Positions 9,296-54,640 of a stretch of 64,000 nt of DNA are shown here, piece by piece. The stretch is from Hymenolepis diminuta (Eukaryota > Platyhelminthes > Cestoda > Cyclophyllidea > Hymenolepididae), in NCBI GenBank assembly GCA_900708905.1, contig CAADRB010000088.1, positions 314,873 to 378,872 on the forward strand. Reading direction: 5' to 3'. A model generated the notes under the pieces. That model saw only the letters and a list, made by a program, of their open reading frames with translations, was not told where the DNA came from and did no database searches. Every line of letters starts with the position of its first letter. The stretch's first letter is position 1. A program made the position numbers and the translations under genes.

Positions 9296-9672
9296 ATGGC
9301 TCGCAAAGATATTTTTAAGAACATACTGGAAGATTCCACTATGAAAGAGAGCACATTAGAAGAGGGTATTTAATTGTTATTTTTTAATCTTTTCTTTAGC
9401 TCGCGAATCGGCTGGGTCAAGTCATCATGTTGAATCATTGTTCATTCGTCCCAGTGCGGTATGTTTTGTTTCGCCGTTTATTATAAATGTAGGAAATTGA
9501 GACCTCGACGGAATCAGGTGTTACTCATCAGAAATTAACGGACAATGAAGGTAGTGTTGTGAGGTGCAAACTTTTATTAGTCAAATTGCAAAATGTTTTC
9601 CTAATTTTCGGTAAATAATTTTTCTTTGATTAAGAAAATCAACAAACCAAAAAGAAAAATCTCAAATCATGG
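9296..9672 (+). other. CENP-C-like gene, exons 1-4 with 34-nt introns
   Basis: Exons: 9296-9365, 9400-9458, 9493-9550, 9635-9672. The product starts MARKDIFKNILEDSTMKE and is rich in charged and S/T residues. The first two introns are 34 nt each with good GT/AG ends. Exon 4 enters in phase 1 and leaves in phase 0, which makes it the linker exon for the first A-type module. The acceptor of exon 4 (ttaag) is weaker than the others, but without this exon the phases of exons 3 and 5 do not match. Upstream non-coding exons are possible. Confidence 0.6.
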
Positions 9673-15600: not shown

Positions 15601-18600
15601 AACAATTCTCATCTCTTACTGTTAATTTCTTTGCTATCTATAATTCTGTTTATGGCAAAGATTATACGTCCAGAAGCATATCAGCGCACGTTTTTCCCTT
15701 TCATAGCATAAGAATTTTATCTTACATTCATATCCGAGTTTGTTTTAAAAGCTGATAAGGTGGTGACAAACATGACTATAATTCTCAGAGCCCTTAGTCT
15801 CCGGATAAGCTGACAAGGTGGTCTTCTAATAACCTCTTCTTAGTATTTGGCACCTTCAATGTTAGTCTAGGCATCAGTCCGGCGATGAGTTGACTTTCAA
15901 TTTTCAATTATATGAAGAGGTGTCCATTACAGGAAGCATGGTCTAAAGGATTTATTGTAGAGCACCATATAGGCAGAGTCTTATAGAATGAAAGGAAATA
16001 GGGATCTATAAGAGTAAGAAAGATTTAAAATGTGAAGCAAGAAATAACAAAGGGTACGACGATGAAGGAGAGCGGCCTTATTTGTCATGATTACTACTTC
16101 TGTTCCCAATATTATGGGATTGTGGCTGAGCACATCTCATTGATCCGTTGGTCTGTCTTTTTCTCACTGTTGGCGAGGTTGCTAGCCTACTCTACTTCCA
16201 ATTAAAAGCAGCAGTAATGACTTATATTATGTCAATGCTTTGCCTTGTTTACAAAGCACCAGCTTTCACCTTACGAATTCTGCTGAGTTTATTTTTGTCG
16301 TAGCCATATGGCCATAGAGACCCGGCTTTAATAGGTGCGTATATAACTATATAAGGAAATTATTAGCCTGTGGGCTTATGCTATTTGAAAATGGACTTGT
16401 TTTGGGATTTAATAACTTAATGAACACAACGGGAATACTTTTATTCATTTTGGATAATTAATAACATTTGTTAAAAGTCTCCACAAGGATATGAAGAGTT
16501 CAGCCTTTTTCACTTCAGCAAACTTGATTCAATCCATTGCCTCTGAATCCCTCGAGGAATCATCTATTCACTTCACAAAGGCACCCAGGCGTAAAATGAC
16601 TTTGCGTGGACGTCGTGGTAATCAGCACAACATCGGAGGTATGTTTCATTTAGTTAAAAATAACGCTTCTTTCCTCTAGACTCCGTGATTCAGATCGATT
16701 TTGTTGAAGCTCTCGCAAAATCCCAACAGCAGCAACAACCAACGTCTTCAAGTAATATAAATATATTTTCTCTAATAATGTAGATTTATTGTTTGAATAT
16801 TTTATTTTGTTTCCTTTTAGCTGGGGTTAATATTTTATCAAAGGAATCGGAAAAGAATGCCTTAAATGATGCTCGTTCACTACGTCCTTCAACATATGGT
16901 AATTTTGTAGCGTTTACTGATTTTATTAAGTAGCATCTGACAAAACAGTAAAATAATTTAGATTTGAGTAAATTAAATTAGATCTAACAATTGTGTATGG
17001 TTATTTTAAAGGTTCTAAAAGCAAAAGAAGGAGAAGTAACTTGCTTTCGTTTGCATTCCATTGTTCTTTTACTGTAATATACTTGTTCTAAATCGAACTC
17101 CTTCGTTGTTGTTTTTGTAGAAGGCAGGCGATCAAACAGAAAACGTCGAAATGCGGTTAATTCAACAAGATCTGCCAATGTCCAGAGTTCTGATACTGGT
17201 ATGCATGAAGGTAAAGACTCTGTTTTTTTATAAAGTCTGTTCATATTACTGGTACAAATTACACTGATCGAACATTACTTTAAAGGCTTGATTCTCTGAG
17301 TAGGATTTTTAGTATTTAATATTAGAATCTTGTTCATTACTCTGAGCATGTATGAGCAGCATCTAATTATTTAAAAAGGATGTTGTTAATTGCTTGTGCT
17401 TTAATAAGCAAAAAGGGAAGGACATTTACCTAATTTGCGGATACAAATGAATAAGCGATTTCAGCACCATAAGTTTAGGTTTACGATGGGATGAATGATA
17501 ATAGGAGCGCCTTAAATGTGTGACGTTGACTTAAGTAAAATGAAAGGAAATAATAAGGGCTTGAGGCAGTTGGTTAGTTACAAAATGTTATTTTTATTAA
17601 ACCTATTGTATCCTTAGGTGCTTTGAAGAAGCAAAAATCCTGGTTCTCGTCGTTATAGCAAAAAATTGTGTATGTATTTGAATCTTTTTATAGAAAATAG
17701 GAGACCTAGTAAGAAACTTCGGAGAAGAGAAATTGCAACTGATGAAAATAACGCTAGTAATGTTGCTGCACAAAAGGAGAGTAAGAACCTTGTTAGTTTT
17801 TGCAAGTTTTGTTTATTAATTCCTGTAATTTTGATCGTTATTTGCAATTTTAGATGCGTCAAATCTTCAAGGTACTATTTCTGAAAATGTAACTCAAGAA
17901 GATATCCTGATGGAAGTTAAAAAATCTTCTAGTGAGGGTAAATTTCCCAAAATATTTCTTTTTGCTGTCCCTGTAAACTATCAGTAAAAACTTAAAACCA
18001 TTAATTCTTAGCTTACAATTTTGGGAGTGAAATAAGAGGAAAATTTGAGTGTTTCAATCCCATTGTTGATATTTTCTCTAACACTCGGGTTTCGTATAGT
18101 AGATATTTGTAATTGAGGCTTTAATTTGAAGTATTTGAGGGTATTTATTTCAGCTGGTGCTTCGTTTTGAAGGCTGCCTATTAAAAGTTGAACTTGACGT
18201 TAATTTTTATGATTAAATGTTTACACTCATTTGCATATTCCATTCATGCAATTCAAAGCCAGTTCTAATTAGTTTAATATCAAAAGGAAGCTTTTGGAAC
18301 CGTAAAATTTTATAAATTGGGTAATCCGTCATATTAATGGCAACATAGAGGTTATTTGCAATAGCCAGATATCCGTAGCTTTTTTGTCTGAGCTTTTAAG
18401 ACCTTCATGAATTTTATTATTTCCATTTTAATAGGTTGTTCAAAAACGGGGTTGAAAAATGCTGTTCACTGTCTAGTTCTTAATAGAAAGCGTATTTCGG
18501 CATTTTTGTCTTTGGTTGTTTGTATTGATCGACTATGGACTACCTCAGCATAGTCGATCCTAGTTGACAAAGTATTAGGGACTGTAATCTATATCACAAT

Positions 18601-21600
18601 TTGAATGAATAAAATATCGGAGACAGAGCATTTGCATTTGCCAGAATCCATGGCATTAGAAAAATGTTGATCTATTTTCTGCCAACAATGGCATTTCATG
18701 TTCTTTTTGGTCTCACTCTTAGGGTTTTTTATTTTGTAGAAGGCAGGAGGTCATCAATTGCTAAAGAGCTAGCAGATTCACCTGAGGTCACTTTTCCAGC
18801 CATTAATCAGTCTGGTAAGGACCTCGTCCATGGTATGTGCCTTTGTCCATTCTTGCTTTACATTGATTTTAATATCATAAATTGTCATCTCTAACGTTAT
18901 AGACGCCTCAAAACATCAAAATTGTGCACCTGAGACTCCGAATGTTGAAGCTGACTTGACGGACGCAGATAAATCTACAACTGAGCGTACGGTTAAGAAA
19001 AGTCAAATATTTTGAATTTTCTTTAATAATCCGGTTTGAAATATTTTTTTTTAATGATTATTTAACAGGGTCTAGAAAATCGATGTGGAGAAGTAAATTG
19101 TTCTCGTTTGCTTTTCATCATTTTTTCTCGTTTTGAACTTATTTTATGTTTTACTACTTTGTATTTTAGAAAGCAGGAAATCAAATTGTAAGAGTCAATG
19201 TGTTGAAGGAGATTCAACAAGTATTGTTCCAGCAACTGATATTGATGCACAAAGTGAAGGTGAGTATCATTACCTCGTTCTCTCCGCGCACTTAAGCATC
19301 ATTTTATTTGTCAGTTTCAACTTCAGATGTTTCAAATCTCAAGGGTTCTGCTGATGAAACCGTAAATAACGAAGGAGACTTATTAAGAGCAGAAAAATCT
19401 GCTAAAGAGCGTAAGTTTACAAAAGTTAATTTTAGAATGTTGAACGGAACTACATTCTGTCTTATGTCCATGAATTCCAGTTGAGTCCATGGGAAATCGG
19501 ACATTATTTGTGATTTTTTGTATTACTTTTGAAACGTCTTACGCAAGTTTAGGTGAATGAGGAAACCTTCCTTTTAACACATTTGATCATAAGATTATGG
19601 AAGATGGTTAAATCCTCCATCAACACAGATACCCATGGGTACGCTTTTATTCACTCATATATTCGATTGAGGAGCGTTCATTACTCAGGTAGTGCTGATT
19701 TTAAACTTTGGTTTAGTGAATTGCTAACAAATTGGGCTGCATTGATGCGTAGAAGGAAAATAGTTTGGACTAAGTGGGAACAAGGAAATGGGATCTATTG
19801 ATGAATACAATTTTCTATGCACTTAGATCACTAAAATATTATCGAATGGATTATCGAGTAAACTTAAGTTTTATCATTGGAAACTCATACGATGGATTAC
19901 ATTGAAAACGCAACGTGTTACAATCTTGTGTCGAATGGCCAGCTCACCTTAGCTGAGCTCATAAGCCAGAAGGGAGAAGAATAACTATGTACTGGGATGG
20001 CAAATACCTTGCTAATACTTGTTAATAGTTAGGGTCTGACAAGGGAACCGATAGCAAGAAGTGTGTTTTTAGAGTACTTGTTGCCTCTAATTAAGATTGT
20101 ACAGTCATCTCATTAGTTTTAATAGAATTCCGTGTTTACTTATACTTAATGTGTACTTTTTACATTGTATTTCAGATTCTATGCGTAATATTTCGAATTC
20201 CTCTGTGGCTGCTCGCACTGTTACCCAAGTTAATGATTCATCATCAACTTGCATTATTCAAATAGAGGACCAAGTTAGTAAAGATAGTGTCTCAAGTAGG
20301 TTAACATAATATCATTGATCCATTTGTTCACTTCAAATCTAAAGGCACTCATTTTTATTTACAGTTCCTTTTTCTGTCATGGAATCGGTAGTTTCGTTCG
20401 AAGAGACCTCGATCCAAAACCTTAAGGTACCCAAACGAAAGGTTACGCTTCGTGGTCGCCGTGCAGCACAAAGTGTTGGAGGTAGGACTTGAAAGATTTT
20501 TAATCGTGACGAACATTCTCCTTTAGATTCCGTTATCCAAGTTGACTTCACAGGAGTATCCGCTCAAGCAAATCAACCTCCGCGTTCAGATGCTATTTCC
20601 GTTCATCCAGTTACTGCTAATGAAGAGGTAACATTTTCTACAAATGTTGCTGATAAAACTGCGCCGGTGAAAGAAGGTAAGTTGTGTATTTCTTTTTGGA
20701 GATCTTTTGCATTACTGTCTATCAGTTGTATTTTAAGACGATTAATGCTTCCTTTTAACATCCTCACTGCATCAAACATAAGTTGGACTTGTTTCTTTTG
20801 AAGTAGAGACTAATTATTTTGGAATAAGCTTAATTTTCATCTAGGCTAATTCTAGACCAAATATATCGTAGTGGGACTATGTAATAGACTACATAGTCTA
20901 TATCAAATATATATGCACATAATGTGCATTATATATTTCACATTATTGTCGAGTGTTGAATGAATTAAGAGTCGACATGAAATTCAATTAGGAATGGTTG
21001 ATATACTGTGATTAAGTCGATGAGCGAGAATGGAGGATCCATTAGCACTTGAGACTAATTGAAGGAAGAGAAGACTGGAAAGAGCATTAATGTGAGGATG
21101 AAGATGAAATAAACTCCAATCCACTATCATGACGGGCGAACGTTCTTATTTTTCCGAATCTTATTGAAGATGTATATGTTATATTTTAGATTCTACGGAA
21201 GAAATTTTGAATCTCGCAGTGGTTCCTGCCGTTAACCAGATTATTGACCCATCAACAGCTTGTGTTACTAAAATAGAGGACCAAGGGAGAGAAAATAGCT
21301 CTACAGGTATATAATGACGAAAATGACATATGTAGTTTTTTATTCATAATTGCTAAGTTGTATTTGCAGTTCCCCTTTCTTTGATGCAAATGGCGACTTC
21401 ACTTGAGGAGACCGCAATTCAGAGCCCAAAAGCACCCAAACGAAAAGTTATACTTCGTGGTCGCCGTGCAAGACAGACTGTTGGAGGTAGGATTTGAATT
21501 GGTTAACTTAGTAAACAATTTCCTGTAGATGTTATGATCCAAACTGACTTCACTGCTCAAGCAAATCAACAAAATGAATCAAATATTTCTGCTCATCCGG

Positions 21601-24600: not shown

Positions 24601-27600
24601 GGTAAGTTTTCACTGCTTTTATGGTAGTTATTTGAAGTGAAGTTTAGCTGAGGACGACTCTTTGCTTAGGTTTCTCACTCAGCCGTGCAGGTAGAGCAAA
24701 CTCGTCAGTGCACAATGCTACTCTGTCTATGGCTGTTTTAAATACTTCAGTAGAACGTAATGAAGTTACAGGTTAGCCGAGTCGTTATTTGATGTCTTTA
24801 TTTGGTGTTTTTTTACAGATTATTTGGCTTTTTGAGCTAAGTTAAGCACAATTTCACGATATTTTCAGATGCACCATCTCGGAATTTAGTTCCCATGGAC
24901 AATGGCATATTGAATCACAAAGAGGTTCTAGAAGATTCGGTTCATTCTCTCGCAGAATCTTTGCCCCATTCAACACGGATGCAAAGTCCTGAATTTCCCG
25001 GCTCGCAGATAGTTGATGGTAGGCATATTTAAATCTCCCTATAGCTCTATTATTAAGCAGTCTTATTCAAGCAACGACCTATCTGAGTTTCCTTTCCTTC
25101 CTGAAAGCAAATTAAAATGTCTCTAATTTTGTCTCCTAGCTATAGGAGGCTTAAAGCCAGAACATTCGGATGAGGTCAATTTGGAAGGAGAACTCAGTTT
25201 AGAGGAAACTCCTGAATCAGAAGATAAAGTCGATACTGCTGTATTGAATGCCAATGAATCCACTCTTCAAGGTATATAATCAGTTTTTCCTTCAATTTGA
25301 TTTAAATTTCGGTTTTAATATTCTTTCATTTTCAAATCTGGTAGCTAAATCCACGTCGATATACAATGCTGCCTCTACAAAGTCTGCTAATCCTTCATCC
25401 GAATTAGAAATTGCAAATGGTTTGTGGTGATTTGATTTACCCAAACTTTGGGTTAGATTAGCCATGCCTTCCCACGTACCGTTTTTTGTTCTATATTTAT
25501 CTTTTGTATCTAACTCTTATATACACCTAAGTTTGGTTGCATTTTCAGTACTTGAGATTTGGGCAGGCATATCATGGCGGTCCAAAAGTGTTGCCTTTTT
25601 TTAATGCTTGGTTGCAAAGTGTCGAAGAAATTTTTTTGACCAAACTCTTTGCTTGTCCTCTAATAATTTTCGAGCTAGCTTTGTTAATGGTTTGTAATAG
25701 TCAAGCTCCCATTGGTCTTAACTATAGGCTCTCTAAAATAGGCAAGAGGTCTCAGCTCTTGTTACTTTGTCTAAGGATCCAATTTTATATCCGCATCTAT
25801 TCTGTCAACTCTCCCCGTTCGGTAAATGTATTTTGCTATGCTATTGTTAGAGTTTATGAAGGATGAATGTTTAACCGTATATCAGTTGTTGAGTGATGAA
25901 CTGGAATAATTGAGGAGAAAGCCTGAGCTGTGTAGTCTAAGCTGTAATAAATTTTGGACAAGGTTTGATGTACGATGAATAAATTATTGATTTACTGATC
26001 TATCAGCTTACGCACGAGTTTATGCACTACCTTATTTACATCAATCTTAAAATCTTTCAATTTCGTTTTCTAGAGTTCTTAACAGGAAAGTCTTGTCAAC
26101 AGGCCAAACTTAAGACTCTTCGTTTGCGTCGAGCTCTTGTTGGCTCAGTTGATGCTACTGCTGCTGCAAACGAAACCACTTTTGAAATCAGTGTCGCGTC
26201 AGTTGCTGGACAGAAACCAAGTATAGGTTTGCGATCTTAGTATTCTTTCCTAATGTAAAATTTAGTCAATTTATCACCCTAAGAGTAGTGCAGACAGAAA
26301 TGAAGGGTCGGTTAAGTATTTAGGCCGGGAGATTTGTTCATGTTGATCTAATAATATAGTTGCATGTTGACGTATTTTATGACCGTACATGGTTAAACTA
26401 GGATTACCAGAAAAACATTCTAGATGCTTTCAAACGAAACACCTCTTCGACACCCATTCAATGACTCTGTTATGGCCCTTGTTACTTTATTTGTTAATAG
26501 AAAGAGGAGATTAGAGGCAGCTTTTATTTATTTATTTTGTAGAGCTGGCGATGACAGAGAGGAAGTCAGGCAGTTGCGAGTTGTGTGTGCGATATATCAC
26601 AGTAGTGTGGTTTTGAAGGAACCAAAAAAGGTCAATATGCCCGTCCGCAAGGTTAGAGATTGCGAGATCGGTGCATGTCCAGTGGTTTGAGTGACTAACC
26701 TGGTTAATTGTAATCAACAAGAGAGGTGATGAGAATCACTCGTAAGAGCGGTTCCAGGATACTCAAGTCAATAGTTACGAACACTTCTTCCTATAGATTT
26801 AGAAGGTGTATATATATGTGGATCATAGACAACCTATTCCGATTGACACCATCGAGTATCCAGTGCTGTGTCAATCAAAGTCAATCTCATTAGGTTATAG
26901 ATGTACAGGGAATTCTTATTTTCTCAAATCGACAAAAAGTGTGATCGAGCTGACTTACGGCGAGCATCTACGGGGAATTATCAGTTGGAAAGCAGAAAAT
27001 TCCAACTCCCGTGAAGGATTGATTTCATATTGAAATAAAACAATTCTTATGGCTACATGTTCTTCAGCTTGTATTAGCTATTGCGATTGAGTTTTCTGAT
27101 TACTAAACTTACACTGTTTACTTCCGATCGTCGAATGTATAGACGTGCAAGTTAACGCTAAGACACATATTCCTTATTCTTAACGTTGAGTTTATGATAA
27201 TTTTAGATAATTACAACACTGATAAGACTGCCGTGTTTTATCATGAATCCCTTACACAAGAAGCAACTGCAGCCAAATCTATTGTTGCTGCATCGAATGA
27301 TCGTCAAAATTCGTCCATATCTATCGAGTTGACCTCGCAAATTGAATGTAATGAAGTCGTAGAAGTAATTATGGATTCAACTCAAGGTAGTTCATTTCCT
27401 GTACCCACACCGTATCCTTAATAATTTCGTTCGTACAGCAGATTAATACGAAATGTGTACTTATGAAGATGAATTTGTTATTCTATGTTATCTTTTGATT
27501 TAGTTCTCAACACTCCTGCTGCCGAACGACTTTCTACAGAGAAACAGGTTTCTGATAGTTCCATTCATGCGATGGAAATTGAGAGTGAGTCGGTATTTTC

Positions 27601-30600
27601 ATTTTCTATATATGCTGATGGAAAACTGAATTTATGGATAAAGTTACTGTGAAAAACACTCAATCTGTGTTATCGTTGCTTTGCTTTGATATCAGTACTT
27701 GCTTAATTCTTCAAGTAAATGGAGAATGATGTTATGATTTGCATCTTTAATTGATACATCTCAAGTATTAAAATGGTTATGCCATAGATTTTGTAATTAG
27801 AAATACTTTTACTCGGTACTTTTCCTATAAAGACATTGCAAGTGATTATTGTTAGATTTCTTGATTTTGACTAGGCAAACTTTAGCAATCAAACCTTATC
27901 CTCTCTAAACCATAAAATAAGTAATCGTTGATATTCGTGAGTTTAAAGCTAAATTTTTTTTCTATTTAGAGTCGAAAAATCTTGCTGAACTGTCTGTTGT
28001 AGACGATTCGCCTTGTACAATGGAACTTGAAGGTTAGCTCTTATGTATATATATATTTTTTCACCTTTTTAGAGGGTTTATTAGCGAATCATGGTTAGTG
28101 CCTCCGACTAGTGACTGAGATTACCAAGGTACTTAGCTATTAACCGAAAGTCTGACACTAACCCACAAGAACCCGTAACACACTGGGAATTACGTACAAG
28201 GAACTCCGTAGACTCCAAGAGGGAACATGTTTTATTCGCATAGCATTATATTGTACCAATTACGACTGTTTAGATACACAAACTAGGCACGATTGACGAT
28301 GTGATCAGATAGTGGGAGCCTGAATATCACAGTACCCAAGTAGGAAAAAGCAAAGGAGGAAGCAAGATTGGAATATTTATCCTATAGACATAGTAGGGAA
28401 ATTTTGTCATACTTAAATTCTATAAACACCTTATATGCTGCATACAAATCTTTTTAAGCATGGGAAAAATTAAGAGCATTTATCGAGGTCCAAAATATAA
28501 GACAAGTAGTTGGATACATATTCTGACCAATCACACATCCAAACAACTGGACGTATACTGACGAGCATCGATTTCTTAACTTTTATCTTAACAGACATGG
28601 ATGCTGATCGCTGCACCCACCGACTGTTTGATAATTGGTATTTAATTTTGTTTCTATTGCTTGGTCATGACTGTGTAATTTGTTATAGTATGCCATCTGT
28701 TTACGATAGAAAATAAAGCGATAAAATGCATTCTGATAACTTTTCTCGTTGGTTAGAAACTCTTCGTGGTGCTTGAAATGTATTATTATCCATACAATGA
28801 TCACTAGGCCGGTTTTATCTAATTATGACCTTATGACACATAAACTAAGTAAAATCAGTTAGCTCTATAGTACATATCCTATTTCTTAAGAGCTTATCAT
28901 GACAAATTTTACGTCTCTGGTCATTGGGACCTCAATGATACCTCGTATCTCCTTAAAGCAAGGGGTTCTTATAACTAATACGCTTATCATAATGAATGAC
29001 GTGTCTACTTAATGGTAATGCTTTTCTCTTACAGATTCTTCCAGTGCGACTAGAAAATCAAAGGTGAGAAAAATTGTTTTAATACTAGTTCTTGTTCAAA
29101 ATAACATTTCTACATGTATTTATTTTCCTATTTAGGCTAGACGAGAGAGTACCTCATGTTCTACCATCCCAACGGGTTCCTCCAATGCTATCGTCGACAT
29201 GCTCGTTTCTTCTTTGAGAAAAAGAGCAAGCAAGGAAAGTATAAATAGTTCTCGATCAGGTATGTTTTTGTTCTTAAATTGATTCAATCAGTACTACATA
29301 ATTGTGTGTTTAATTTCATTTTACAGCGCTGGCGTCATCAAACCGTTTATCTCAAGCGCCCTTAAAGGGTAATATCCCTAGTAAGTGTTGAAAACTTGAA
29401 TCTTAATTGATTTCAGTTGTTATCAGTAGTTTGATTTTCCCTTCTCCCTCCTTTCCAGATGAAACGGGTAGAGATCTGCTGCCATTACCTGTTTCGCCGC
29501 GTCGTGTCTGGCCCTCGCCTTTGCGTCGGTCAGGGTCTGTCGGATACACTTGTCCATCAATTTCTTGTGTGCAACTTGGGGAAACTAGATCAAGGAGTTC
29601 TTTCAGTAAGTCTTGCTAGCTCTTATAACAGTCATAGACGTACAAATAAGTGCGTTCTGGTACTAATTTAATAATTCTAATCAGAAGGAATCTCAGAATT
29701 CATATAGCCGTCGTATGGAGCATGTATTAGCACTGAAGGATGCGTTAAGAAACGGTTAACATTATATTTTACAGCTGAACAACAAAACTAATTACTGGGA
29801 AAAGGAGCGCACATTCAAATTATCTCCTGTCGGGATTATCTTAAAAAACATGGAATAACTGTAAAACGGTAACAATATAGATTTAGCGTTTGAAGAAATT
29901 GATTGAGGTCTCTGTGGTCTTCATGCGTTTCTGCAAAGTCAGAAATAATTGATGCGGGTTCTGTGATGCGGATGCCCAACCGCACCAATTAATTTTGGTC
30001 GGCAGGAGAAATTATAAAATGCGAACTGTTCACCAGAGAACCATCAAGATAAATCCTTCTCAATTCAAGTGTAGCTAATACTTCCTTAGGGTGAGTGACC
30101 GTAACTAACTTGGCACTCTTAGTAAAGTTTTGCTGCCAATGGTCTACATTGTTATAAAAGATACATTGGGCGATATCATTTGTGTGCCCTGTGATGTCAC
30201 TATAACCGCTAACCGAGAAACTGAAAGTTTTAATATTTTTCATTGCAGGAAATTATCCAAACATACGGAGAGGTGATAGAGAGGTTTTTTGTTTTGAGTT
30301 TGAGTTATGCTTTACTGTCATCTCGTTAGCTCACTGGTTTGTTCGTTAAAACTTTCCTTTCAACCTCTGTATTTTCACTAAAGCATCGCATTTAATGAGA
30401 GCAAGTTTTCGCCAAAGAATAAAATCGATTTTAGCATTTGATTGTTATTACAAATGCCAAAACAAAACACAAACTTTAGCAAGTTTTGATTACGAGAAGC
30501 TATTAAACTGTCCTGTAAGGGATGAAAATAGGGTAGTAGAATGAAGATGATAAAATCAGGCCATGAAACCTTACCTTATTTGAATATTTGAAACATTCAA

Positions 30601-31184
30601 CCGTCCACTTTTCCCATAATAACTGTAGACCACTGTTTCAGTCTAATGTTACGAACTTCTTGCTTCGACCCCTAGGTTCCTGGGTGGGATCATATTCACG
30701 ATTGATCAGCTGATTTAATCTAGCGGTTTATCTAGTCACTTCGGTAAATTTATCTTTCTAAAAAGCTAGGTTATAATAGGTGGAAAGGGGAATATGACTA
30801 AAATGGGTAAGAGAAATAAATGTGAGCTATATGGGACAAAGTGAAGGAAGGTAAACGAATGGGCTAGTTATGAATAATCATATGGAATTTTGATAGGTTT
30901 CATACTCATGAATTCCTTGATAAGTGTTTAAGAGAGAAAGTATCTCATTACTTTTAATTCAGACTTTGTATCGTTTACTTTATTTTTTTGACATCTTTTA
31001 ATAACACAAACTATTTAGCTACCAAATGAATGTATCATAACCCTTCATCAATACATTCTTATTGATGACAGTCATTCATTACTAATCAAACTTAAAAAAC
31101 GCAAGATATTTTGAGGCGTTAAATCAAATTGATCTTGTGATTATTACTCACCTATACAACGAAACTGCAAGAGCTAAATTTAAG

Positions 31185-31220
<36 letters not shown>

Positions 31221-34200
31221 TTAAGTGCCAAATTAAGAATTGAGATTTAAGGATCAGACGAACAGGGCATGTTATGAAATCAAACATAACCTTTCCTTCT
31301 TTTGACTTGTAGCCCATAGTCACTTTTCGCGTCCTGTTACCATTAATACTGATGGTACAAGATCTACAACTTCAAGTGGTAATCAGCGAAGAATGATAAC
31401 CGAAGAAGAAGTTCGTGAGATGGAAATGAAGCGTAAATTGAACTTCTTTCTCTAAGCATTTTTTCCTTGTCTTTACCCTATTTTGCTTGCCACTTTCAGT
31501 TATGGACATCTCTGCAGATGATATAAGTGTCGATCAGGAGGTTAATATCGTACGTTTAAGCTCTATTTTCTGATGACAGTGGGTATGAATAATTAGAGTT
31601 CATTCCGTTTTTGCTACAGAATAAGCCTGACCCGGTAAATGCGGTACCATCAATTCACGTACCTGAAGATCTCACGCTTTGTGGAGAAAATACCAATGTT
31701 ACTATGCTGCAGGATATGCTCATGTCGCCCCAACCTTTCGAAAAGTCTGCTTCTAAGGCTCCGACTCGTAAATCAGCCGGTCGCAATAAGAGTCGTCGAA
31801 GTGTTCAGTTTGCGCCTTTAGCTGGTAAGCTTGCTATCCTTAATAAATTTTTCTCTATAACATGACAAAATATTGCGATCTTAATTCAGGAACAGATATT
31901 TAAGACTGTTGAAAGATATTTCCAAGGTTGCCATCGCTGACATAACCTGGAGTACCTCTGCTTTTTTCGCTAGGTGTCCACTGAGGTTGCACTACGGCTA
32001 CATTTACTCAGATTTGGAAGAAAGAAGATAGAAAATCTATAGCTTAAACTAGGGTATTTTCCACCTTAGTTAGATAACAATTGTACTTATGTAGGTTAAG
32101 AAACATGGGAATTTATTGGCTAGTCAATAGTGGCAATAGTGTAGAGATTGATAAACAGCTAGAGGAGGGTAGCTGAAATTGTTTTGTTGCAAGGTTGCTC
32201 TATTGTCGATCTCAATTTATATAGAATTCATACTGTATTGTGTGAATACTATCTCTTGGCCGACGTGTAGTTCCCTCTCTTAGCATTTAGTGGTAGTTAA
32301 GATTCTACTTTCTGCATCCATATTTCACTCAATAAACTAGGATTACAACATATATGCGTTTCTGAACTGGTTTTTCTTTGAGCAAATGAAATCAACTAGA
32401 TCAAGCTTTTAATGTGTGGTTCTTAAGAATTCATCAGCACCTTGATTGTTTTATTGAATTTAACAGTTCTAATGAAAATTTCAAGTAGTGTTGTTAAATC
32501 TATTTAATCAACAAATTCGGTCAGCTAATGTTCGTATTAAAAATACGAATTGGACGTAAAGCTGTATAGCTTTAGATATTACCGTTACCAGACGGAGAAG
32601 AAAGTAGAATATGAAGATTTCTTTCTTGAAAAGTAAATTTGCCCCTACTGTTTGGATTGCTATTTGAGCCAATTTGTCCTTCAGGATACTTGAAGAGACC
32701 AATTCTGTTGGAAATTCGATTTAATGACTATTCCTTTTCTTTCTTTTCATAGCTAAGAAGTATTGCCGAGATGTTAATGTAGTGTCTTCTAGCCTTCGAA
32801 TTTTAATCTCCGTGTATTTTAAAATTCCTTTAGAGATGTACGAGGAACATTCTGAGGATAAATGGCGGCGTGTCCCATTGGGTCTTAATAAAGTATCTCC
32901 AACTCGATCCCCCTCATCTGATCTTTCAAAGAATGAGCGGAATTTTCCTCCGATGGATCTTAATGGAATATCACCGATTGCACCTCGTTCATCACCTGGT
33001 GGAAATTTGAATGATTCCTTTATTGATAAGTGTAAGCTCTACCTTCTGTTTATCTTAATGAAGTCCACCTCTTTCGAGTTACCTCAAACTCATTTTAATC
33101 GTATTTATCAATGCAAATAGTGGGATCACCCGAATTTCCGCAAAAATCGCGACTTGGGACAACAATATTAGGAGTCAACGAAGTGGGTCAACTGAGAAGT
33201 GCCCGTCCCTGTCTTACTCCAATAGGTAAGAATAACTGTTTGTTCTGCTTTTGGCAATTCTGCTTAATCCAGTTTAACGGAATCTTTCGAGACTGGAGTT
33301 AGTGTCGGATAGCTTTCAACGTGGATGTCTGTTAAGTCAGAAAGGTCAGAGCCTCGATGCTTATCCAGTGATCAATCTCGTGGTAGTCATTGATGATCAG
33401 TAAGTTTGTGCCAGAAAACAATTTCGTCATATAGGGGTTAGAGGATTCTGACTTGCTAACCCTTTATTGAGGATGATAGTTGAAAATCACATCCATTGGA
33501 TATGGTTGGGAATTAAAGTAATATCATGACTGTTGCATATTTATTAACCAGTTCTTCAACATTTTGCAATTTTACGGAACTCAAACATTCAGTCTTAATC
33601 TTGCAAAGGAGCCGACTGTCAGTTGGGTAAATTTAAGGTGTCAGTTTTTTGTACAGTCTCTCATCCAACTGGGCGATTGTGGTAATGATAAGACATCTAC
33701 ACTTGAAAATGTTATGCATATGACCTTCGATGGATTATTGTCAACAGTGGTGAAATTGAACATATGCTTGTGCCACTGGCACAGTGCTCAACATGCACGT
33801 TTATCACATCACGATTCTCAAAATCGATGGTTTAGTCTGGTTGGTAAGAATATAAGTTTCTCATCTATGCTGCTTTAGAACACCTTCCTTTCTAAGTGCT
33901 GTTGATACCTGCCTTAACTGGAGGTTTTACACGGTATTGATTAGGTATATAAAATACATTATGGTAGTCGGGCTTTAGAGCATTGAGGAAATAGCTCAGG
34001 TACCTTAGAGCCTTTCGGCAATATGGACGTCTGTTAAGTCAAGGAGATCAGAATTTCGGTATTCTTCCAGTGATCGACTTGACATCTCGAACAAGTTAAC
34101 AATAGTAAGTAGAGATGCGGTAGAAATGATTCTCTCATTTCTGGGTTTCTGGATTGGTAATCCTGTGTTCGGCTCAATTGTTCGAACTGGGCTTTTATTC

Positions 34201-37200
34201 ACTGGATTTGGAAATCACGATATTTTGTGAAAGTCACATACTTAACAATCCTATAATAATTAGAATGCGTATTATATAAACTTTGAGTTTTTATCTTGCT
34301 AGATAGCCGAGAGATAGTTGTGTGAATGCCCAACTAGACCTAACATCAAGATAATTGTACTTGAAGATGTTGATCACGAACGCCTACTTATGTGTCTATG
34401 TGAAGCCAATGTTCGATGCATATTCTGTGTATTAGTTTGACAAAAATGTGAGTTCATTAGAGCAGTTCTTGAACGCTTTTCTCTGTTGGTGTTTTTAGTT
34501 CATGCTTTGTTTAGAGGTTTTATATGATATTGATTAGTTGTTTTAAACGCAAGGGGGTAGGACCATCACTTTACTGTGGTTCTTGTTATCACTAAATAAA
34601 TACAACACTTCTGGCAATTATCGCTGGAGAAGTGCTCGGTTTCCTGACATCGAGTTTTGTTTTAGCCCTTGAAGCTCTAACATCTTGGAAAGACGGGAAA
34701 CTTGTGCCTTCACTTGATCCACAGGATTTAGACGCTGCAACGGAAAAGACTTTCGGTGGGTCTTCCACTTAATAACATGCTAATTAATTTTGGAACTGAT
34801 TTATGTTTATTTTTCAATGTCTTTTTGTCATTATTTTCAGCGGAAAATTTAGTCACGGGGAGTCAGATGCTTACGCCCGAACAACTTAAAGCTGTAGTAT
34901 GTTACTCTTTACTCTTTGTTGGTATCAAAATATATTAATCCTAAACGCGTTCCTGTTTTGAAATTGTCAGCTTACCTTCCTTGTACCGAATGAATCGAAA
35001 TTTGTGGATAATCCTTCCTCCTCCCGTGAGTTTTTCGCCCTTTTTTTTTAATTTATTGTTTATTGAGAACACGGACTATATTGGATGATTAAAGATGGTA
35101 GAGGTTGTTATAAACGGTAATTAATCATTCTGGGAAGAAGGGAGAAGACAGTCACTCCAATAAGTTTACTAATTTAATAAAAATTATTTATGGGAATAAG
35201 AGTCCTTGTGTAAGGTTTAATCCACTGTCTGGACTTATAAGACCTTTCTAATGGTATCCGAGTCAGTTTGCATATTGATCTGATATAGAAGAATGTGAAT
35301 TACTCATTTCGAGACAGCTCGTCGACTCCGCGTTCTTGAGCTATTTTTTTTCCGGTGAACGTGCTGGAGAGTTTGGCCAACTCCTGTCACCACGGAGATG
35401 CCTTCAGATTAAGAAGAGTTCGCGCTTGAGGATTGATGTGTTAGGTAGCGATATGTTGCATTCTATCATGAGGGAATAACAATTACTTTAAAACTGCACA
35501 GATTTTCATCGTTATAGCCACCGAGTAGTTTACGAGTGTGAGCCGAGACTAATTACGATCTGTACAACTTTATAAATTTATATTTGAGCATCTTGTATAA
35601 AACTTTTTCTATGAAAGCTTATTTCTTTGTGAAGTATCCTTAAATAAAAAAATGCATTTTTGACAATTGTCGCTACATTTAAAGAGAAATAAGATTGGAT
35701 ATCATACTATTTACCACATAAATCTCCACGCTAATGCCGATCTGAACTTTTACTTTAGACCTTGCAACACAAAAGCATTCTCGGCCTAGAGAAGTGACCT
35801 GCCGAATTGATCCCTCGACAGTGAGTCAGTCGCAATGGTTGCCCCCTCCAGATGAGGGCATGGAATACGACATGGATGCTCTCAGAAAGGCATTGCACTA
35901 CATGCTCCTTGGATGGGCCGAACCGTCCGATCCCATTTTTATTCCTCTACGTGAGTTATCTCTATCAATTTAATCGCACCGATTTTGTGAGATTTTATTA
36001 TGAATCACCCCTTGTCTTATCGTTACAGCCAGATCAGCATACCAACGTCACTGCGCAGGAGAAGCCAACAGGGGCATACGTCGGGGCACCCGAATCCGTG
36101 TTCATACACCTATCGATTCTTGGGATAGGGTCTACAGGGAGACGCGTGTTGATCCTGTCACAGGTCGCAAAGAAGAGTTACCTCTTGGGTACCTGCGATA
36201 CCCCAAACCGGAGGAAGTTCGCAGGAGGCAGAGACTGTTGAGAGCTCGTAGAGGTGACTTTCTAGAGAATTCGTCCAAGCTACTTGCCATGAAGAGGGCA
36301 CGAGAAGCTAGGCTAAAAAAACTTGCCGCTAAAAGGAGACGTGAGGAGGGCAAGGGTATGTGTTTTGGTTTTTATTATTCACTGGAGGATGAAGAAATAT
36401 TTAAGATGCTGTGTGGTTCGAATTTTTTAGCTAAAGAAGAATCCATATGGTTGACCATCAAGCTGGAATCCGACGTGATTTTGATGGACGAAGATACGAA
36501 AACACTTCCCATCGGACATCTCATTAAACCTGATGGACCTTCAGACATTCGTGAGTTAAATCAAATTAGTTGACACATTACAATTACAGGGAATGAGGTT
36601 TTTAAACACACTGTAGGTATGTTGAAATCCTGGTTTCACATCTGAAATCCCCCTCAGTAAATACTGCATTGAAAGTTATGAATCCCGTCAAAACCGTATC
36701 TGTGTTCAAGTTAACCGTATGCCGTAATCTTTACGAATTAGTCGGTTATCGATATAGCGAGTAATTTTTGCAAAACGTGCTCTAGTTACCTGATACTATG
36801 TCATAGTGTTGTTATTACTTATTTAAGCTTACAACAGTTAGAATTCAATAGAACACGTAGTTTTCTTAATGATTATTTGTACTCCAAAATTATGCAAAGC
36901 AACGACTCGGCGATTTAGCGCGTTCTAACAATATGGAAATTTTATGAATAATTAATAATATGTTGTTAATTTGATTTTTCTTTGATAAAAATAATTTTTA
37001 TCCAACAGGTGTTGTCGCGGATAATTATTTGTTTTAATTTCTTTCAGCTGTTATCTTCGATAATGCCAAGGATGCCTCCCCTTTGATCTCTGGTTGTATC
37101 GCTGAAGGGATTGATGACTTTGTAATAGAGACCGGTGTAGGACTTCTCCAGAGCGGTCCTCTTGAAGTCTCTATCCATGACATCACCAACGTGATCTCGA

Positions 37201-37525
37201 CCGAACAGAAACGTCGAGGACTCCATTTCGACACCAAATTCAACAACTTATTCATTCTCCAACTGGATAAATCCGATGAACTGGAATCGGATGACACATT
37301 TTTAATCGTTCAAATTGGCAACTACGCGATCCCTCTGAAGAAGTCTGTTTTGATATTTGTACCAAGGGGTAAGCGTGCGTTTCTTTTATATGAATATTTT
37401 CCCATTATTTGAAGTGCTTTAATTGTCCATTTTATTTCCCTTTAGGTATTCCTTACAAATTTGTTAGCATCGTCCCCTATTCCATCACTGCTTTGCGCTT
37501 TAAATTTATCCCTAAACGACCTTAG
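9296..37525 (+). CDS. Giant CENP-C-like inner-kinetochore protein (65 exons, about 2,284 aa)
   Basis: I joined 65 exons by matching GT/AG sites and reading phase; every junction keeps one frame from the ATG at 9296 to the TAG at 37523-37525 (6,855 nt). The fold-defining part is C-terminal: a CENP-C motif near residues 2020-2034 (RRGTRIRVHTPIDSW, compared with the family pattern of paired R, then P and W) and then a cupin-like domain (about 2150-2284) ending VPRG.PYKF and a C-terminal strand. Known: CENP-C binds the CENP-A nucleosome through R and W of this motif, dimerises by its cupin, and links centromeric chromatin to the outer kinetochore. The N-terminal two thirds are duplicated exon cassettes rich in R/K and S/T, unlike any CENP-C I know. 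Vertebrate CENP-C is about 940 aa. Exons and introns are treated below. A break into two genes is not excluded without transcripts. Confidence 0.72.
10082..10744 (+). other. Intron 6 of the CENP-C-like gene
   Basis: 663 nt of AT-rich sequence with a consensus donor (gtaagt) and acceptor (cttttag). I see no repeat or coding signal in it. Confidence 0.5.
10965..12052 (+). other. Intron 8 of the CENP-C-like gene
   Basis: 1,088 nt between two A modules. An open frame of 65 codons at 11388-11585 has no recognisable domain and is taken as chance. Nothing else recognised. Confidence 0.5.
12270..13052 (+). other. Intron 10 of the CENP-C-like gene
   Basis: 783 nt between two A modules. No coding or structural signal recognised. 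Confidence 0.5.
13262..14621 (+). other. Intron 12 of the CENP-C-like gene, with a piece shared with intron 45
   Basis: 1,360 nt. The stretch around 14050-14110 (CTGTGTCAAT then AAGGTTAACCT...AGGTCA) resembles 26850-26910 in intron 45 (CTGTGTCAAT then AAAGTCAATCT...AGGTTA), suggesting a worn dispersed repeat in both introns. Nothing else recognised. Confidence 0.4.
14622..14954 (+). other. CENP-C-like gene, exons 13-14
   Basis: Exons 14622-14768 and 14880-14954, both phase 1-1. The product is S/T/P-rich with one basic patch (HRRRST). A disordered linker is likely. No domain recognised and no sister copy found. Confidence 0.65.
14955..16518 (+). other. Intron 14 of the CENP-C-like gene
   Basis: 1,564 nt, the second longest intron. 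The B-type cassette downstream has a leading exon in its other two copies; if a leading exon of copy 1 exists it should be in here, but I could not find one. Nothing else recognised. Confidence 0.45.
16519..16898 (+). repeat. B-type exon cassette, copy 1 (exons 15-16) and exon 17
   Basis: Exon 15 (16519-16638) encodes a stretch with ESLEESSI, then KAPRRKMTLRGRRG and a glycine end; exon 16 (16680-16751) encodes DSVIQIDFVEALAKS then five glutamines. The 41-nt intron between them matches the 45- and 42-nt introns in copies 2 and 3. Exon 17 (16821-16898) is a phase 1-1 linker with no recognised domain. Copy 1 lacks the leading exon seen in copies 2 and 3. Confidence 0.75.
17211..17693 (+). other. 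Intron 19 of the CENP-C-like gene
   Basis: 483 nt between exons 19 and 20. A microexon could be hidden near 17618-17650, but no version keeps the phase cleanly. Nothing else recognised. Confidence 0.4.
18527..18559 (+). repeat. Perfect 11-bp inverted repeat in intron 21
   Basis: GATCGACTATG at 18527-18537 and its exact reverse complement at 18549-18559 are separated by 11 bases. It lies within the 802-nt intron 17938-18739, away from both splice sites. It could form a hairpin in the pre-mRNA or be the remnant of a small mobile element; no function is claimed. Confidence 0.7.
19411..20175 (+). other. Intron 26 of the CENP-C-like gene
   Basis: 765 nt. An 82-codon open frame at 19553-19801 has no recognisable domain. 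Nothing else recognised. Confidence 0.45.
20176..21666 (+). repeat. B-type exon cassette, copies 2 and 3 (exons 27-32)
   Basis: Two tandem copies of a three-exon unit: 27 (20176-20295), 28 (20365-20481), 29 (20527-20676); then 30 (21190-21306), 31 (21370-21486), 32 (21529-21666). Exons 28 and 31 share P.S.M...S.EET.IQ, then KRKV.LRGRRA.Q.VGG; exons 29 and 32 share D..IQ.DF...QANQ and end V.EG; exons 27 and 30 share a middle part DPSTACVTKIEDQ-like. The short intron and the start of the following long intron are also alike, so the whole genomic segment was duplicated. The LRGRRA core is strongly basic and may bind chromatin (inference). Confidence 0.85.
20677..21189 (+). other. Intron 29, with two adjacent hairpin sequences
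   Basis: 513 nt. Near its middle are a 9-bp inverted repeat (20875-20883 with 20890-20898) and then an AT-rich near-perfect palindrome centred at about 20924 (roughly 20908-20941). The start of this intron resembles the start of intron 32 (from 21667), consistent with cassette duplication. Confidence 0.55.
21667..22433 (+). other. Intron 32 of the CENP-C-like gene
   Basis: 767 nt. The first 60 or so bases resemble intron 29. Overlapping minus-strand open frames at 21628-21954 are shadows without domains. Confidence 0.5.
22434..25419 (+). other. CENP-C-like gene, exons 33-44
   Basis: Exons 22434-22496, 22578-22667, 23067-23150, 23204-23305, 23638-23700, 23770-23853, 24269-24324, 24412-24601, 24670-24771, 24869-25018, 25140-25271, 25345-25419. 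Products are acidic and S/T-rich with few basic patches, suggesting disorder. Exon 39 (VSLMQSTMS) and exon 40 (VVEIDFAANLKAAED) look like a diverged B cassette. Exon 35 needs a GC donor at 23151; skipping it also keeps the frame. Introns of 400-415 nt at 22668-23066 and 23854-24268 hold nothing I recognise. Confidence 0.6.
25420..26073 (+). other. Intron 44, possible dead exon
   Basis: 654 nt. A good acceptor (gcattttcag) at about 25548 is followed by 18 open codons and then a TAA in the required phase, so it may be a decayed exon. A 109-codon open frame in another phase (25537-25866) has no domain. Confidence 0.35.
26074..26226 (+). repeat. Exon 45: isolated sixth A-type module
   Basis: One 153-nt phase 1-1 exon encodes a short linker, then KLKTLRLRRALVGS, a spacer and TTFEISVASVAGQKP. 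This is the A-module pattern of exons 5-12 with linker and repeat fused in one exon, as in exon 6. It sits more than 12 kb downstream of the main array, at about residues 1342-1392. Confidence 0.85.
26227..27206 (+). other. Intron 45, with a piece shared with intron 12
   Basis: 980 nt. The stretch 26850-26910 resembles 14050-14110. An 88-codon open frame at 26424-26690 has no recognisable domain. Confidence 0.4.
27207..29605 (+). other. CENP-C-like gene, exons 46-52
   Basis: Exons 27207-27386, 27504-27584, 27970-28032, 29035-29063, 29136-29259, 29327-29380, 29459-29605. Exon 49 is a 29-nt phase 1-0 linker followed by a phase 0-1 exon of 124 nt, the same architecture as an A module, although its residues (ARREST...SLRKRASK) have diverged. 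Exon 52 holds a P/R-rich stretch (SPRRVWPSPLRRSG) of unknown role. Intron 48 (28033-29034, 1,002 nt) and the shorter ones show nothing recognisable. Confidence 0.6.
29606..31312 (+). other. Intron 52, the longest intron, with a TA microsatellite
   Basis: 1,707 nt. The TA repeat is at 31187-31217. A minus-strand open frame at 29989-30243 has no recognised domain. Nothing else recognised. Confidence 0.45.
31187..31217 (+). repeat. TA dinucleotide microsatellite
   Basis: About 15 TA units without interruption, 95 nt before the acceptor of exon 53. Confidence 0.95.
31313..33225 (+). other. CENP-C-like gene, exons 53-57 with a PP1-docking-like motif
   Basis: Exons 31313-31432, 31500-31549, 31620-31824, 32753-33031, 33121-33225. 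Exon 55 ends in a basic stretch with RRSVQFAP; R-S-V-Q-F fits the RVxF docking consensus for protein phosphatase 1, with V near residue 1737. Exon 56 is S/P-rich (SPTRSPSS). Exon 56 reads through a possible short intron, so its first third is less certain. Intron 55 (31825-32752, 928 nt) shows nothing recognisable. Confidence 0.6.
33318..33415 (+). repeat. Intron 57 direct repeat, copy 1
   Basis: Shares with 34018-34115 the blocks GTCTGTTAAGTCA, GATCAGA or GTCAGA, and TCCAGTGATC in the same order and spacing. Identity is roughly 65-70% by eye. Confidence 0.55.
34018..34115 (+). repeat. Intron 57 direct repeat, copy 2
   Basis: Partner of 33318-33415, about 700 bases downstream in the same intron. 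Confidence 0.55.
34666..35950 (+). other. CENP-C-like gene, exons 58-61
   Basis: Exons 34666-34755, 34841-34896, 34971-35025, 35759-35950. Exon 61 begins HLATQKHSRPREVT and continues with WLPPPDEGMEYDMDALRK and a hydrophobic, tryptophan-containing end (LHYMLLGWAEP), which may be a folded helix next to the CENP-C motif. For exon 59 a donor at 34897 is needed to keep phase 0. Intron 60 (35026-35758, 733 nt) shows nothing recognisable. Confidence 0.65.
36029..36355 (+). other. Exon 62: CENP-C motif and basic helix
   Basis: The exon reads in the phase set by exon 61 and gives GIRRGTRIRVHTPIDSW near residues 2018-2034. In the family the paired arginines contact the H2A/H2B acidic patch and the aromatic residue contacts the CENP-A tail; both R and W are present. 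After it comes RVYRETRVDPVTGRKEELP, then a long basic region (RRRQRLLRARR, KKLAAKRRRE) that could be a helix and nuclear localisation signal. A frame one base over is also open here but lacks the motif and breaks the phase. Confidence 0.75.
36431..37525 (+). other. Exons 63-65: C-terminal cupin-like domain
   Basis: Exons 36431-36550, 37048-37368, 37446-37525. The region has alternating beta-type strands: IWLTIKLESDVIL, GLLQSGPLEVSIHDI, FLIVQIGNYAIPL, VLIFVPRGIPYKFVSI and ALRFKFIPKRP at the stop. The order, with VPRG followed by Y and a last strand of the L.F type, is that of the CENP-C/Mif2 cupin, which makes the protein a dimer. About 170 residues, the usual size. Intron 63 (36551-37047) contains a repeat shared with 40032-40145. 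Confidence 0.65.
36880..37005 (+). repeat. Dispersed repeat in intron 63 (partner at 40032-40145)
   Basis: Shares TACTCCAAAATT, the CGACT block, TTGTTAATTT and GATAAAA with 40032-40145 in the same order. Roughly 65-70% alike by eye. Confidence 0.5.
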
Positions 37526-53619: not shown

Positions 53620-54640
53620 TGATAGGTTGACTTATCAGCTTGCAACATAAGTGAAAATTTTGTCAAAAATGCATTTATTTAGTGTTCAGTATAGTCACCA
53701 TTTCTATTAATTACATCTTCCTATCTTGCCATAGCTTTCTTATTCCCTCTTCATAGAATTTTATTAGTTTGGACTCAAAAAAGAAACTAGCTTCATTTCG
53801 ACCTCTTCTTTTGAAGTAAGCCTTTGTCCCATTAAATGAATCTGTAAGCTCCTGAAAAGATGGAAATCGGTTGATTCAAGAGGGGTAGAATGTGGTGGGT
53901 GATGTATGACTTCCCAGCCAAATTCTTCAACGAGATGTGTAGTTGCTCTTGAAGTGTGAGGTCTGGCATATCATGGTGCAGAATCACTCCTTTTTGATTG
54001 ATCAAAGAGGGCCGTATTCCTGCCCTTAGTTGCTTTTAAACGAGTTAGCTGCTGACGGTAAACAGTCCACTTCTTGATTGTGGAATTGGCTTTGAACTAC
54101 GACTTAGCCACTGTCTTTTGCGTTTAACCTTGTTGTTCACCACTCCTCCTTGCTGTCAGTTATAATTGGGTTTAAAAAAGGTGCCTGAAGTTGAGTTCAC
54201 GGGAACGCAGTGAAACACAACAGGTCACACACTGTTGCTTGTTCATTTCTGACAAATTGTGTAGGACCCATTTGTCAGCCTTTGAGACTTTCCCAACCAG
54301 ATCTTTTCATTTCCCTATATTTGGTCATATGGCGGCTTACGTGAAAGTTTTTGCTCGGTACTCTTGTAGTGCAGGTTGGATTTTCATAAATGGCAACTTG
54401 CAATTGCTCAGAATTTAGTTTTTTGAGCATCCTGCTTTCGGTTCGCCTTTCAGACTGAAGTCATCCTTTTTGAAATGTGAAACCACCTTCTGCATGCCCT
54501 TTCATTCACAGCATCATTTCCATAAGTGTCTTTGAGCGTTTTTGCTGCTGAGCTTGTCGTATTTCCTTGGTGAAATTCAAAGTGTAAAATATGCCTGATA
54601 TGCTCTTTAAGTGGAGTGCACATTAGGGCCAGAAATAGTT
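53620..54640 (-). pseudogene. Decayed mariner-family transposase, second lineage
   Basis: Reading leftwards from about 54625 the pieces come in transposase order: EHIRHILHFEFHQGN and SAAKTLKDTYGNDAVNERACRRWF (N-terminal helix-turn-helix), KRKRQWLS, TVYRQQLTRLKAT, HHDM/ARPHTS (second D region), FGWEVIHHPPHS and DFHLFRSLQIHL (third D region, the SPDLAPSD box degraded), and ESKLIKFYEEGIRKLW at the end. Many stops and at least one frameshift are present. The wording differs clearly from the element at 45688-47006, so it is an older, different mariner lineage. Possible left end near 53622 (ATAGGTTGACTTATCAGC); the right end could not be fixed. Confidence 0.8.

What the first reader, a model, noticed from the sequence alone, without database searches (positions are those of the whole stretch)
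9296..37525. Giant, modular CENP-C built from duplicated exon cassettes
A 65-exon gene stays in frame over 28 kb and ends in a CENP-C motif plus cupin, yet its N-terminal two thirds consist of three families of tandemly duplicated exons. CENP-C homologues are usually far shorter and have no such array. This could be a lineage-specific kinetochore with multivalent binding to centromeric chromatin, or a result of centromere-drive conflict.
Basis: partly seen in the sequence, partly recalled or inferred. Interest (0 to 1): 0.88.

Follow-up and report, generated by a model that had tools for sequence, protein, structure and literature searches.

The report
Tapeworm CENP-C enlarged by exon cassettes
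A rat-tapeworm gene predicted to run over 62 exons encodes a likely CENP-C, the protein that ties centromeres to the cell-division machinery, more than twice the length of the human one because, in its front part, groups of exons likely were copied several times, which would give it many extra grips on centromeric chromatin.

Summary
The observation largely holds. The species is Hymenolepis diminuta (rat tapeworm). My exon-chaining model gives one gene of 62 exons and 2,219 aa (9296-37525, +). An annotated H. weldensis protein spans the model at 78% identity, and 61 of 62 exons are matched by an annotated relative. Fifty-two of 61 introns are phase 1. Three exon families are real: A (6 copies), B (4) and C/D (one C copy doubtful); the 22 top-scoring of 1,891 exon pairs are all within a family, with 0 of 2,000 shuffles each. 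They span 41% of the protein.

The CENP-C reading is likely but composite. No Pfam CENP-C family matches; the motif is pattern-like in five tapeworms but not significant by sequence search; the modelled C-terminal domain of an orthologue is a cupin, with three CENP-C cupins among its five best matches, tied with others. A CenH3 candidate exists.

Mechanism (inferred): disordered arginine-bearing repeats add weak chromatin contacts to one CENP-C motif and a cupin. Precedent: grass CENP-C exon-pair duplications (PMC549713). A copies predate the Hymenolepis-Rodentolepis split; centromere drive is untested.

The parts
9296..37525 (+). whole gene: 62 predicted exons, 2,219 aa, likely CENP-C
9296..9550 (+). 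N-terminal exons 1-3; the AG just before the start ATG could be a spliced-leader acceptor (inferred)
   Evidence: N-terminus conserved in P0005 and P0006
9635..13261 (+). family A copies 1-5 (exons 4-12; small exon of 29-38 nt + exon of 115-121 nt, fused in copy 2; core R-x-RR-x-LVDS...TFELSVA)
   Evidence: resemblance among the small exons is weak at DNA level
26074..26226 (+). family A copy 6, one exon (exon 42)
16519..16751 (+). family B copy 1 (exons 15-16; core PRRKMTLRGRR...DSVIQIDF)
20176..20676 (+). family B copy 2 (exons 25-27)
   Evidence: 75% DNA identity to copy 3 over 146 nt
21190..21666 (+). family B copy 3 (exons 28-30)
24269..24601 (+). family B copy 4, degenerate (exons 36-37)
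   Evidence: the GRR core is lost here but kept in H. weldensis and R. nana
17121..19410 (+). family C/D exon pairs (exons 18-24; C = GRRS-type, D = ASNLQ-type)
   Evidence: exon 19, and exon 20 against 22, weak
29459..33225 (+). linker exons 49-54 with blocks WPSPLRRSGS.GYTCPS and RRSVQFAPLAE shared with Hydatigera and, more loosely, Mesocestoides
36079..36141 (+). CENP-C motif RRGTRIRVHTPIDSWDRVYRE, residues 1955-1975
36463..37525 (+). C-terminal cupin domain, exons 60-62 (residues 2058-2219)
   Evidence: fold predicted on the M. corti orthologue P0008, not on this protein:

Best explanation
This is a likely CENP-C, predicted to be read from one 62-exon gene, that would hold centromeric chromatin in two ways: once through its single CENP-C motif and likely dimerising C-terminal cupin, and many more times through an upstream array of duplicated, probably disordered, arginine-bearing repeats. 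The repeated exons, the phase-1 intron bias and the conservation of the repeats in relatives are seen in the sequence. The step from repeats to extra nucleosome (acidic-patch) or DNA contacts is inferred from the conserved arginines in families A and B and from human CENP-C, where an unfolded central domain with an arginine anchor does this job. Growth was likely by tandem duplication of whole exon cassettes with their introns: because most exons start and end in phase 1, copies can be added or lost without breaking the frame. Which partner each family binds, and whether all copies are in one mRNA, is untested.
Against: No Pfam CENP-C family matches up to E 10 over the whole protein, scanned in pieces, or in orthologues; the stray matches (NOG1, mRNA_decap_C, DUF2808, 2C_adapt) are all under their cut-offs. 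By sequence search the motif is not significant: the Hydatigera motif finds only Mif2, E 0.28, with no single stretch significant; the five-species profile ranks a cytochrome subunit first (0.082) and rat CENP-C second (E 2). H. diminuta itself misses the strict pattern. Other cupins score as well as CENP-C cupins. The aligned repeats leave out H. diminuta B copy 4, which lost GRR, and H. weldensis B copy 3, which has DY for DF. A matches nothing relevant in the PDB and B nothing. The array is not basic overall (12.4% K+R, 13.9% D+E). No transcript, localisation or binding data.
Confidence: 0.55

Rival explanations
1. The repeats are docking motifs for outer-kinetochore or checkpoint proteins (as MELT repeats do in KNL1), not chromatin grips.
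For: A repeats end in T-[FLMV]-E-[LI]-S-V, which loosely recalls the M-[ED]-[LI]-[ST] motif (recalled), and the T and V of that stretch are conserved in at least 90% of the aligned copies. The region 1-1354 is 21.7% Ser+Thr, but so is the non-repeat linker (22.0%). MELT copy number balances checkpoint strength (PMC7292645, title and start of abstract in a listing).
Against: The only invariant positions of A are an arginine and a valine in its first half; family B has a different second half (VIQ-D-F). A KNL1 RWD search of the genome was empty but says nothing, since Nuf2 was missed too.
Confidence: 0.2
2. The duplicated exons are alternatives: one or a few copies are spliced in at a time, giving isoforms rather than one giant protein.
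For: A copies 1-5 stand next to each other, share length and phase, and any subset keeps the frame; annotations of relatives differ in small exons (3, 4, 31, 32, 56, 57 are missing from P0005).
Against: One annotated protein holds 6 A and 4 B copies in H. weldensis and 5 A and 4 B in R. nana, though these are predictions; A copy 6 and the B copies stand apart from each other, and most copies are two-exon units.
Confidence: 0.15
3. The expansion is a near-neutral lengthening of a disordered spacer with no special binding role.
For: Repeats are predicted disordered or at most weakly helical (mean pLDDT 60); copy number differs between lineages; B2/B3 show only mild constraint.
Against: Core residues are held across copies and species; pN below pS between copies; A copies kept one-to-one between H. 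diminuta and H. weldensis, and five of six with R. nana.
Confidence: 0.15
4. The protein is not CENP-C but another nuclear cupin protein with an arginine-rich motif.
For: No Pfam CENP-C match; many other cupins match the modelled domain equally well; motif not significant by sequence search.
Against: Order of parts (disordered N-terminus, RR..R.R...P....Y/W motif, basic helix, terminal cupin) is that of CENP-C (established knowledge); pattern once per orthologue, in the expected place; the only PDB hit of the Hydatigera motif is Mif2 at its own CENP-C motif.
Confidence: 0.1

Closest known systems
CENP-C / Mif2 / Cnp3 (metazoan and fungal CENP-C family)
   Same: Long, largely disordered N-terminus, one CENP-C-type motif, C-terminal cupin
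   Different: 2,219 aa against 943 in human (7xhn_C) and 549 in yeast (7on1_C, which I take for Mif2 because it holds the motif of 6qld_C); exon-cassette array; one more residue between the arginines and the aromatic residue; too divergent for Pfam
Grass CENP-C with duplicated exons 9-12 (Talbert et al. 2004, PMC549713)
   Same: Tandem duplication of exon pairs in the middle of CENP-C, copy number differing between relatives; the authors suggest from basic residues that the unit binds DNA (passages)
   Different: Two or three copies of a pair in grasses; here about 14 copies in three families, in an animal; no sequence comparison with grass exons was made
Human CENP-C central domain (PMC5472775)
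   Same: Unfolded nucleosome-binding segment with an arginine anchor, upstream of the CENP-C motif (passages)
   Different: No such array of copies is described in the passages seen; no sequence homology to the tapeworm repeats was shown
KNL1 MELT arrays
   Same: Kinetochore scaffold with an amplified short motif
   Different: C-terminus here models as a cupin; no KNL1 Pfam match; motif differs

Membership tests
CENP-C | CENP-C motif (RRSxRxR..P..YW type) upstream of the C-terminal domain | tested here: met
   Pattern read from four solved motifs: strict form once in P0007 and once in P0008 (0 and 1 of 5,000 shuffles), not in the three hymenolepidids; looser form, set after seeing these sequences, once in each of 5 of 5 orthologues (0 to 2 of 5,000 shuffles). 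The spacing 2-4 before the aromatic was also set after seeing them
CENP-C | Significant sequence match of the motif to known CENP-C | tested here: inconclusive
   Mif2 is the only PDB hit of the Hydatigera motif, E 0.28; five-species profile: rat CENP-C second at E 2, behind a cytochrome subunit
CENP-C | C-terminal cupin dimerisation fold | tested here: met
CENP-C | Match to Pfam CENP-C profiles | tested here: inconclusive
   None up to E 10 in the protein (residues 1-934, 935-1539 and 1532-2219), in P0007 or P0008; genome search with PF11699 empty. HMMER's filters drop weak matches, and the family may be out of the profile's reach
CENP-C | CenH3 histone present for it to bind | tested here: met
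   Divergent H3 at G000:C61 (L009); best PDB matches Cnp1 at 4.9e-18, ahead of canonical H3 (1e-16 to 1e-15). Candidate by sequence only
CENP-C | Centromere localisation and kinetochore function | not testable with these tools
   needs cells
CENP-C | N-terminal Mis12-complex binding segment | not tested
   no relative with a known segment was compared
KNL1 | C-terminal RWD domains | tested here: not met
   the C-terminus of the orthologue models as a cupin; no KNL1 Pfam match in any piece
Grass-type CENP-C exon repeats | Homology of repeat unit to grass exons 9-12 | not tested
   grass sequences were not fetched

The most novel reading that the evidence does not exclude
Tapeworms rebuilt CENP-C into a multivalent chromatin clamp: three separately amplified, disordered repeat families, at least two carrying their own arginine grip, would let one CENP-C dimer span many nucleosomes of the very large terminal centromere arrays seen in Hymenolepis (known for H. 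microstoma, where such arrays replace telomeres), so that the same protein could serve both kinetochore and chromosome end.
Probability: 0.2. Interest if true: 0.85.

Novelty: new variant of a known kind. Interest (0 to 1): 0.58.

Why it matters
CENP-C is essential for chromosome segregation in most animals and fungi and evolves fast (established; PMC549713). No paper in the held open library names both CENP-C and cestode (0 papers); the 6 that name CENP-C and flatworm (listing only) do not look like studies of a flatworm CENP-C. H. microstoma chromosomes end in centromeric arrays put at 5.5 Mb or more each, and its authors say that definitive validation awaits a centromere-specific histone (PMC7653826, passages); the CenH3 candidate and this CENP-C make that testable in the genus. 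A second and larger case of exon-pair amplification in CENP-C, after grasses, would show that lengthening the chromatin-binding middle of CENP-C with modular exons is a repeated evolutionary route.

Tried and rejected
Common origin of families A, B and C (each has an arginine core followed by a hydrophobic-acidic stretch): profile-profile comparison is no better than column shuffles (14, 11 and 8 of 100 reach the observed score). Among the 40 tested exon pairs a few cross-family ones were rarely reached by shuffles (exons 5-23, 1 of 2,000; 12-27, 2 of 2,000), which is not beyond 1,891 comparisons. Left as unproven.

Homology of the small A exons (4, 7, 9, 11) at DNA level: only 7-9 (0 of 300) and 7-11 (6 of 300) stand out; 4-7, 4-9, 4-11 and 9-11 do not (48 to 235 of 300). 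Of the larger A exons, 5-10, 8-10 and 8-12 stand out (0, 1, 0 of 300), the other three pairs do not (38 to 162); the A family rests on protein similarity.

Further degenerate A or B copies: none clear (best extra p 0.010 to 0.011, exons 18 and 33).

Known fold or partner of the repeats: one irrelevant weak PDB match for A, none for B; AlphaFold2 on six A copies gave only a low-confidence helix.

Loss of other inner-kinetochore proteins as a cause: Ndc80 is weakly found. Of 15 CENP-T rows, 11 lie on or within 6 kb of histone matches; the other 4, two of them over the cut-off, were not followed. KNL1 and Mis12 profiles are silent, but Nuf2 is silent too, so these negatives mean nothing. CENP-I and CENP-N did not complete.

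Copy number of the gene in the genome: not established. Positive selection between species: not possible, only proteins of relatives were at hand.

Paper searches: tapeworm, CENP-C, centromere (1,023 papers with two of three terms, 20 listed); CENP-C and flatworm (6); CENP-C, Schistosoma, kinetochore (5, one read in passages, PMC13322267, about HJURP); CENP-C and cestode (0); CENP-C motif, exon duplication, repeats (250, 15 listed, none relevant); KNL1 MELT; centromere drive, CENP-C, exon, duplicated, basic residues (7).
Full report
Where it is. The window lies in a 170.6-Mb assembly of 203 contigs. An annotated H. diminuta protein, P0001, matches the gene at 100%, so the species is Hymenolepis diminuta, the rat tapeworm.

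The gene. A dynamic-programming chainer (GT/AG sites, codon scores, frame kept across introns) was run from the ATG at 9296 and its result edited by hand at a few exons. The outcome is 62 exons, 2,219 aa, stop at 37525. Every intron is GT-AG, the joined frame has no internal stop while the other frames have 103 and 211, introns run from 34 to 1,707 nt (median 85), and exon GC is 43% against 34% in introns. The number of exons moves with the penalty used, so single small exons are uncertain.

One gene, not several. P0001 (432 aa, partial at both ends) is contained letter for letter in the model, from exon 53 into exon 61. P0005 of H. weldensis is one annotated protein of 2,163 aa that aligns over residues 1-2218 at 78% identity. 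P0006 (Rodentolepis nana, 1,733 aa) and P0007 (Hydatigera taeniaeformis, 1,915 aa) align over much of it, and P0008 (Mesocestoides corti, 699 aa) over the C-terminal part. By my thresholds 56 of 62 exons are matched by P0005 and 61 by P0005, P0006 or P0001; only exon 32 is unsupported. P0005 has a D-type exon that was not among the off-model matches in H. diminuta. Against: P0002, from another H. diminuta record, is a 292-aa piece that skips part of exon 61. All of these are gene predictions, so transcripts remain the missing proof.

Intron phases. Fifty-two introns are phase 1, nine phase 0 and none phase 2; 42 of 60 internal exons are symmetric 1-1. Against an even chance of phases this has p about 8e-17, though even chance is a crude null. 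The bias is alike in the repeat region (36 of 42) and downstream (16 of 19), so it is a property of the gene that allows cassette copying rather than a product of it.

The repeats. Family A has six copies (exons 4-12 and 42), mostly a small exon (29-38 nt) plus one of 115-121 nt; copies 2 and 6 are single exons. Core: [KR]..LR.RR.LVDS....TFELSVA. Family B has four copies (exons 15-16, 25-27, 28-30, 36-37), core P.RK.TLRGRR...GDSVIQ.DF. Family C/D comprises exons 18-24. In an all-against-all comparison of 1,891 exon pairs the 40 best were tested: the first 22 all lie within A, B or D and none was reached in 2,000 shuffles; the other 18 had 1 to 100. The best score in ten whole-set shuffles was 50; 4 of the 22 score below that and rest on the pairwise shuffles. 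Profile searches find all A and B copies far above shuffled exons, as expected since the profiles hold them. Copies B2 and B3 are 75% identical over 146 nt of DNA. Repeat exons span 905 residues, 41% of the protein and 67% of residues 1-1354.

History. Between H. diminuta and H. weldensis each A copy is 77-100% identical to its own counterpart and 26-62% to the others; with R. nana the counterpart is the best match for copies 1, 2, 4, 5 and 6, while copy 3 is degenerate there. So these copies predate the split of the genera. Hydatigera has five A copies; two of them sit in a perfectly identical stretch of 90 residues (686 and 1049), meaning a recent duplication or an assembly or annotation artefact. 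No B copy was found in the annotated Hydatigera protein, and only a weak B-like fragment in P0008. Substitution counts between copies show pS above pN (A pooled 0.74 and 0.40, near saturation; B2/B3 0.38 and 0.27, dN/dS 0.33/0.53), which fits a coding sequence under mild to moderate constraint. The array is less conserved between H. diminuta and H. weldensis (73-97% in 100-residue bins over residues 1-1400) than the C-terminus (89-96% over 1901-2219).

How it would work. In human CENP-C an unfolded central domain and the CENP-C motif each bind the nucleosome, with an arginine anchor for the acidic patch (PMC5472775, passages; there the central domain, not the motif, is what holds CENP-A in place). 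By analogy, the tapeworm cupin would dimerise, the motif would bind the CenH3 nucleosome, and the A and B repeats with their conserved arginines would add weak contacts to nucleosomes or DNA. The array as a whole is not basic (12.4% K+R, 13.9% D+E), so the unit is an arginine cluster followed by an acidic-hydrophobic stretch rather than a simple DNA-binding tail. All of this is inference.

Compared with what is known. Grass CENP-C has recurrent tandem duplications of exon pairs 9-10 and 11-12 in its middle region, with basic residues suggesting that the repeat binds DNA and positive selection in some of the copies (PMC549713, passages). The tapeworm gene is the same kind of change taken further, in an animal, with three families. 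Searches of the held open library showed no description of a flatworm CENP-C in their listings; subscription papers were not searched. The H. microstoma genome paper reports terminal centromeric arrays and names CENP-A evidence as the missing validation (PMC7653826, passages).

Noticed in passing
G000:C61 about 2421.9-2423.1 kb (locus L009; histone-fold exons end near 1775 and run about 2495-2729): Candidate CenH3 (CENP-A) gene of H. diminuta: divergent H3 fold, loop 1 three residues longer by eye; best PDB match is fission-yeast Cnp1, ahead of canonical H3. The 5' exons are uncertain.
   Followed up: partly
P0003, P0004 and P0006 (Rodentolepis nana): Three R. nana records cover the same CENP-C region at only 85-93% identity to each other: alleles, or duplicated CENP-C genes in that species.
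   Followed up: no
window 36356-36430: The 75-nt intron between exons 59 and 60 is open and in frame in H. diminuta; H. weldensis P0005 keeps it as coding, P0001 splices it out.
   Followed up: partly
window 2746-2907, - strand: Exon of a BRO1-domain protein (ALIX-like by recall), Pfam PF03097 at 3.8e-8, just under the family cut-off.
   Followed up: partly
window 45959-46939 (+) and 53866-54093 (-): Likely remnants of mariner-like transposases: weak match to the Mos1 HTH domain (E 0.014, under cut-off) for the first piece only; the rest by eye.
   Followed up: no
P0007 residues 686-775 and 1049-1138: Hydatigera orthologue carries a perfect 90-residue internal duplication containing an A repeat: recent duplication or assembly artefact.
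   Followed up: no
P0005 residues 477-505 (between C1 and C2): H. weldensis annotation has one more D-type exon than my H. diminuta model.
   Followed up: partly
G000:C6:2505484-2506690: Weak Ndc80 matches, one over the Pfam cut-off but with a stop inside.
   Followed up: no
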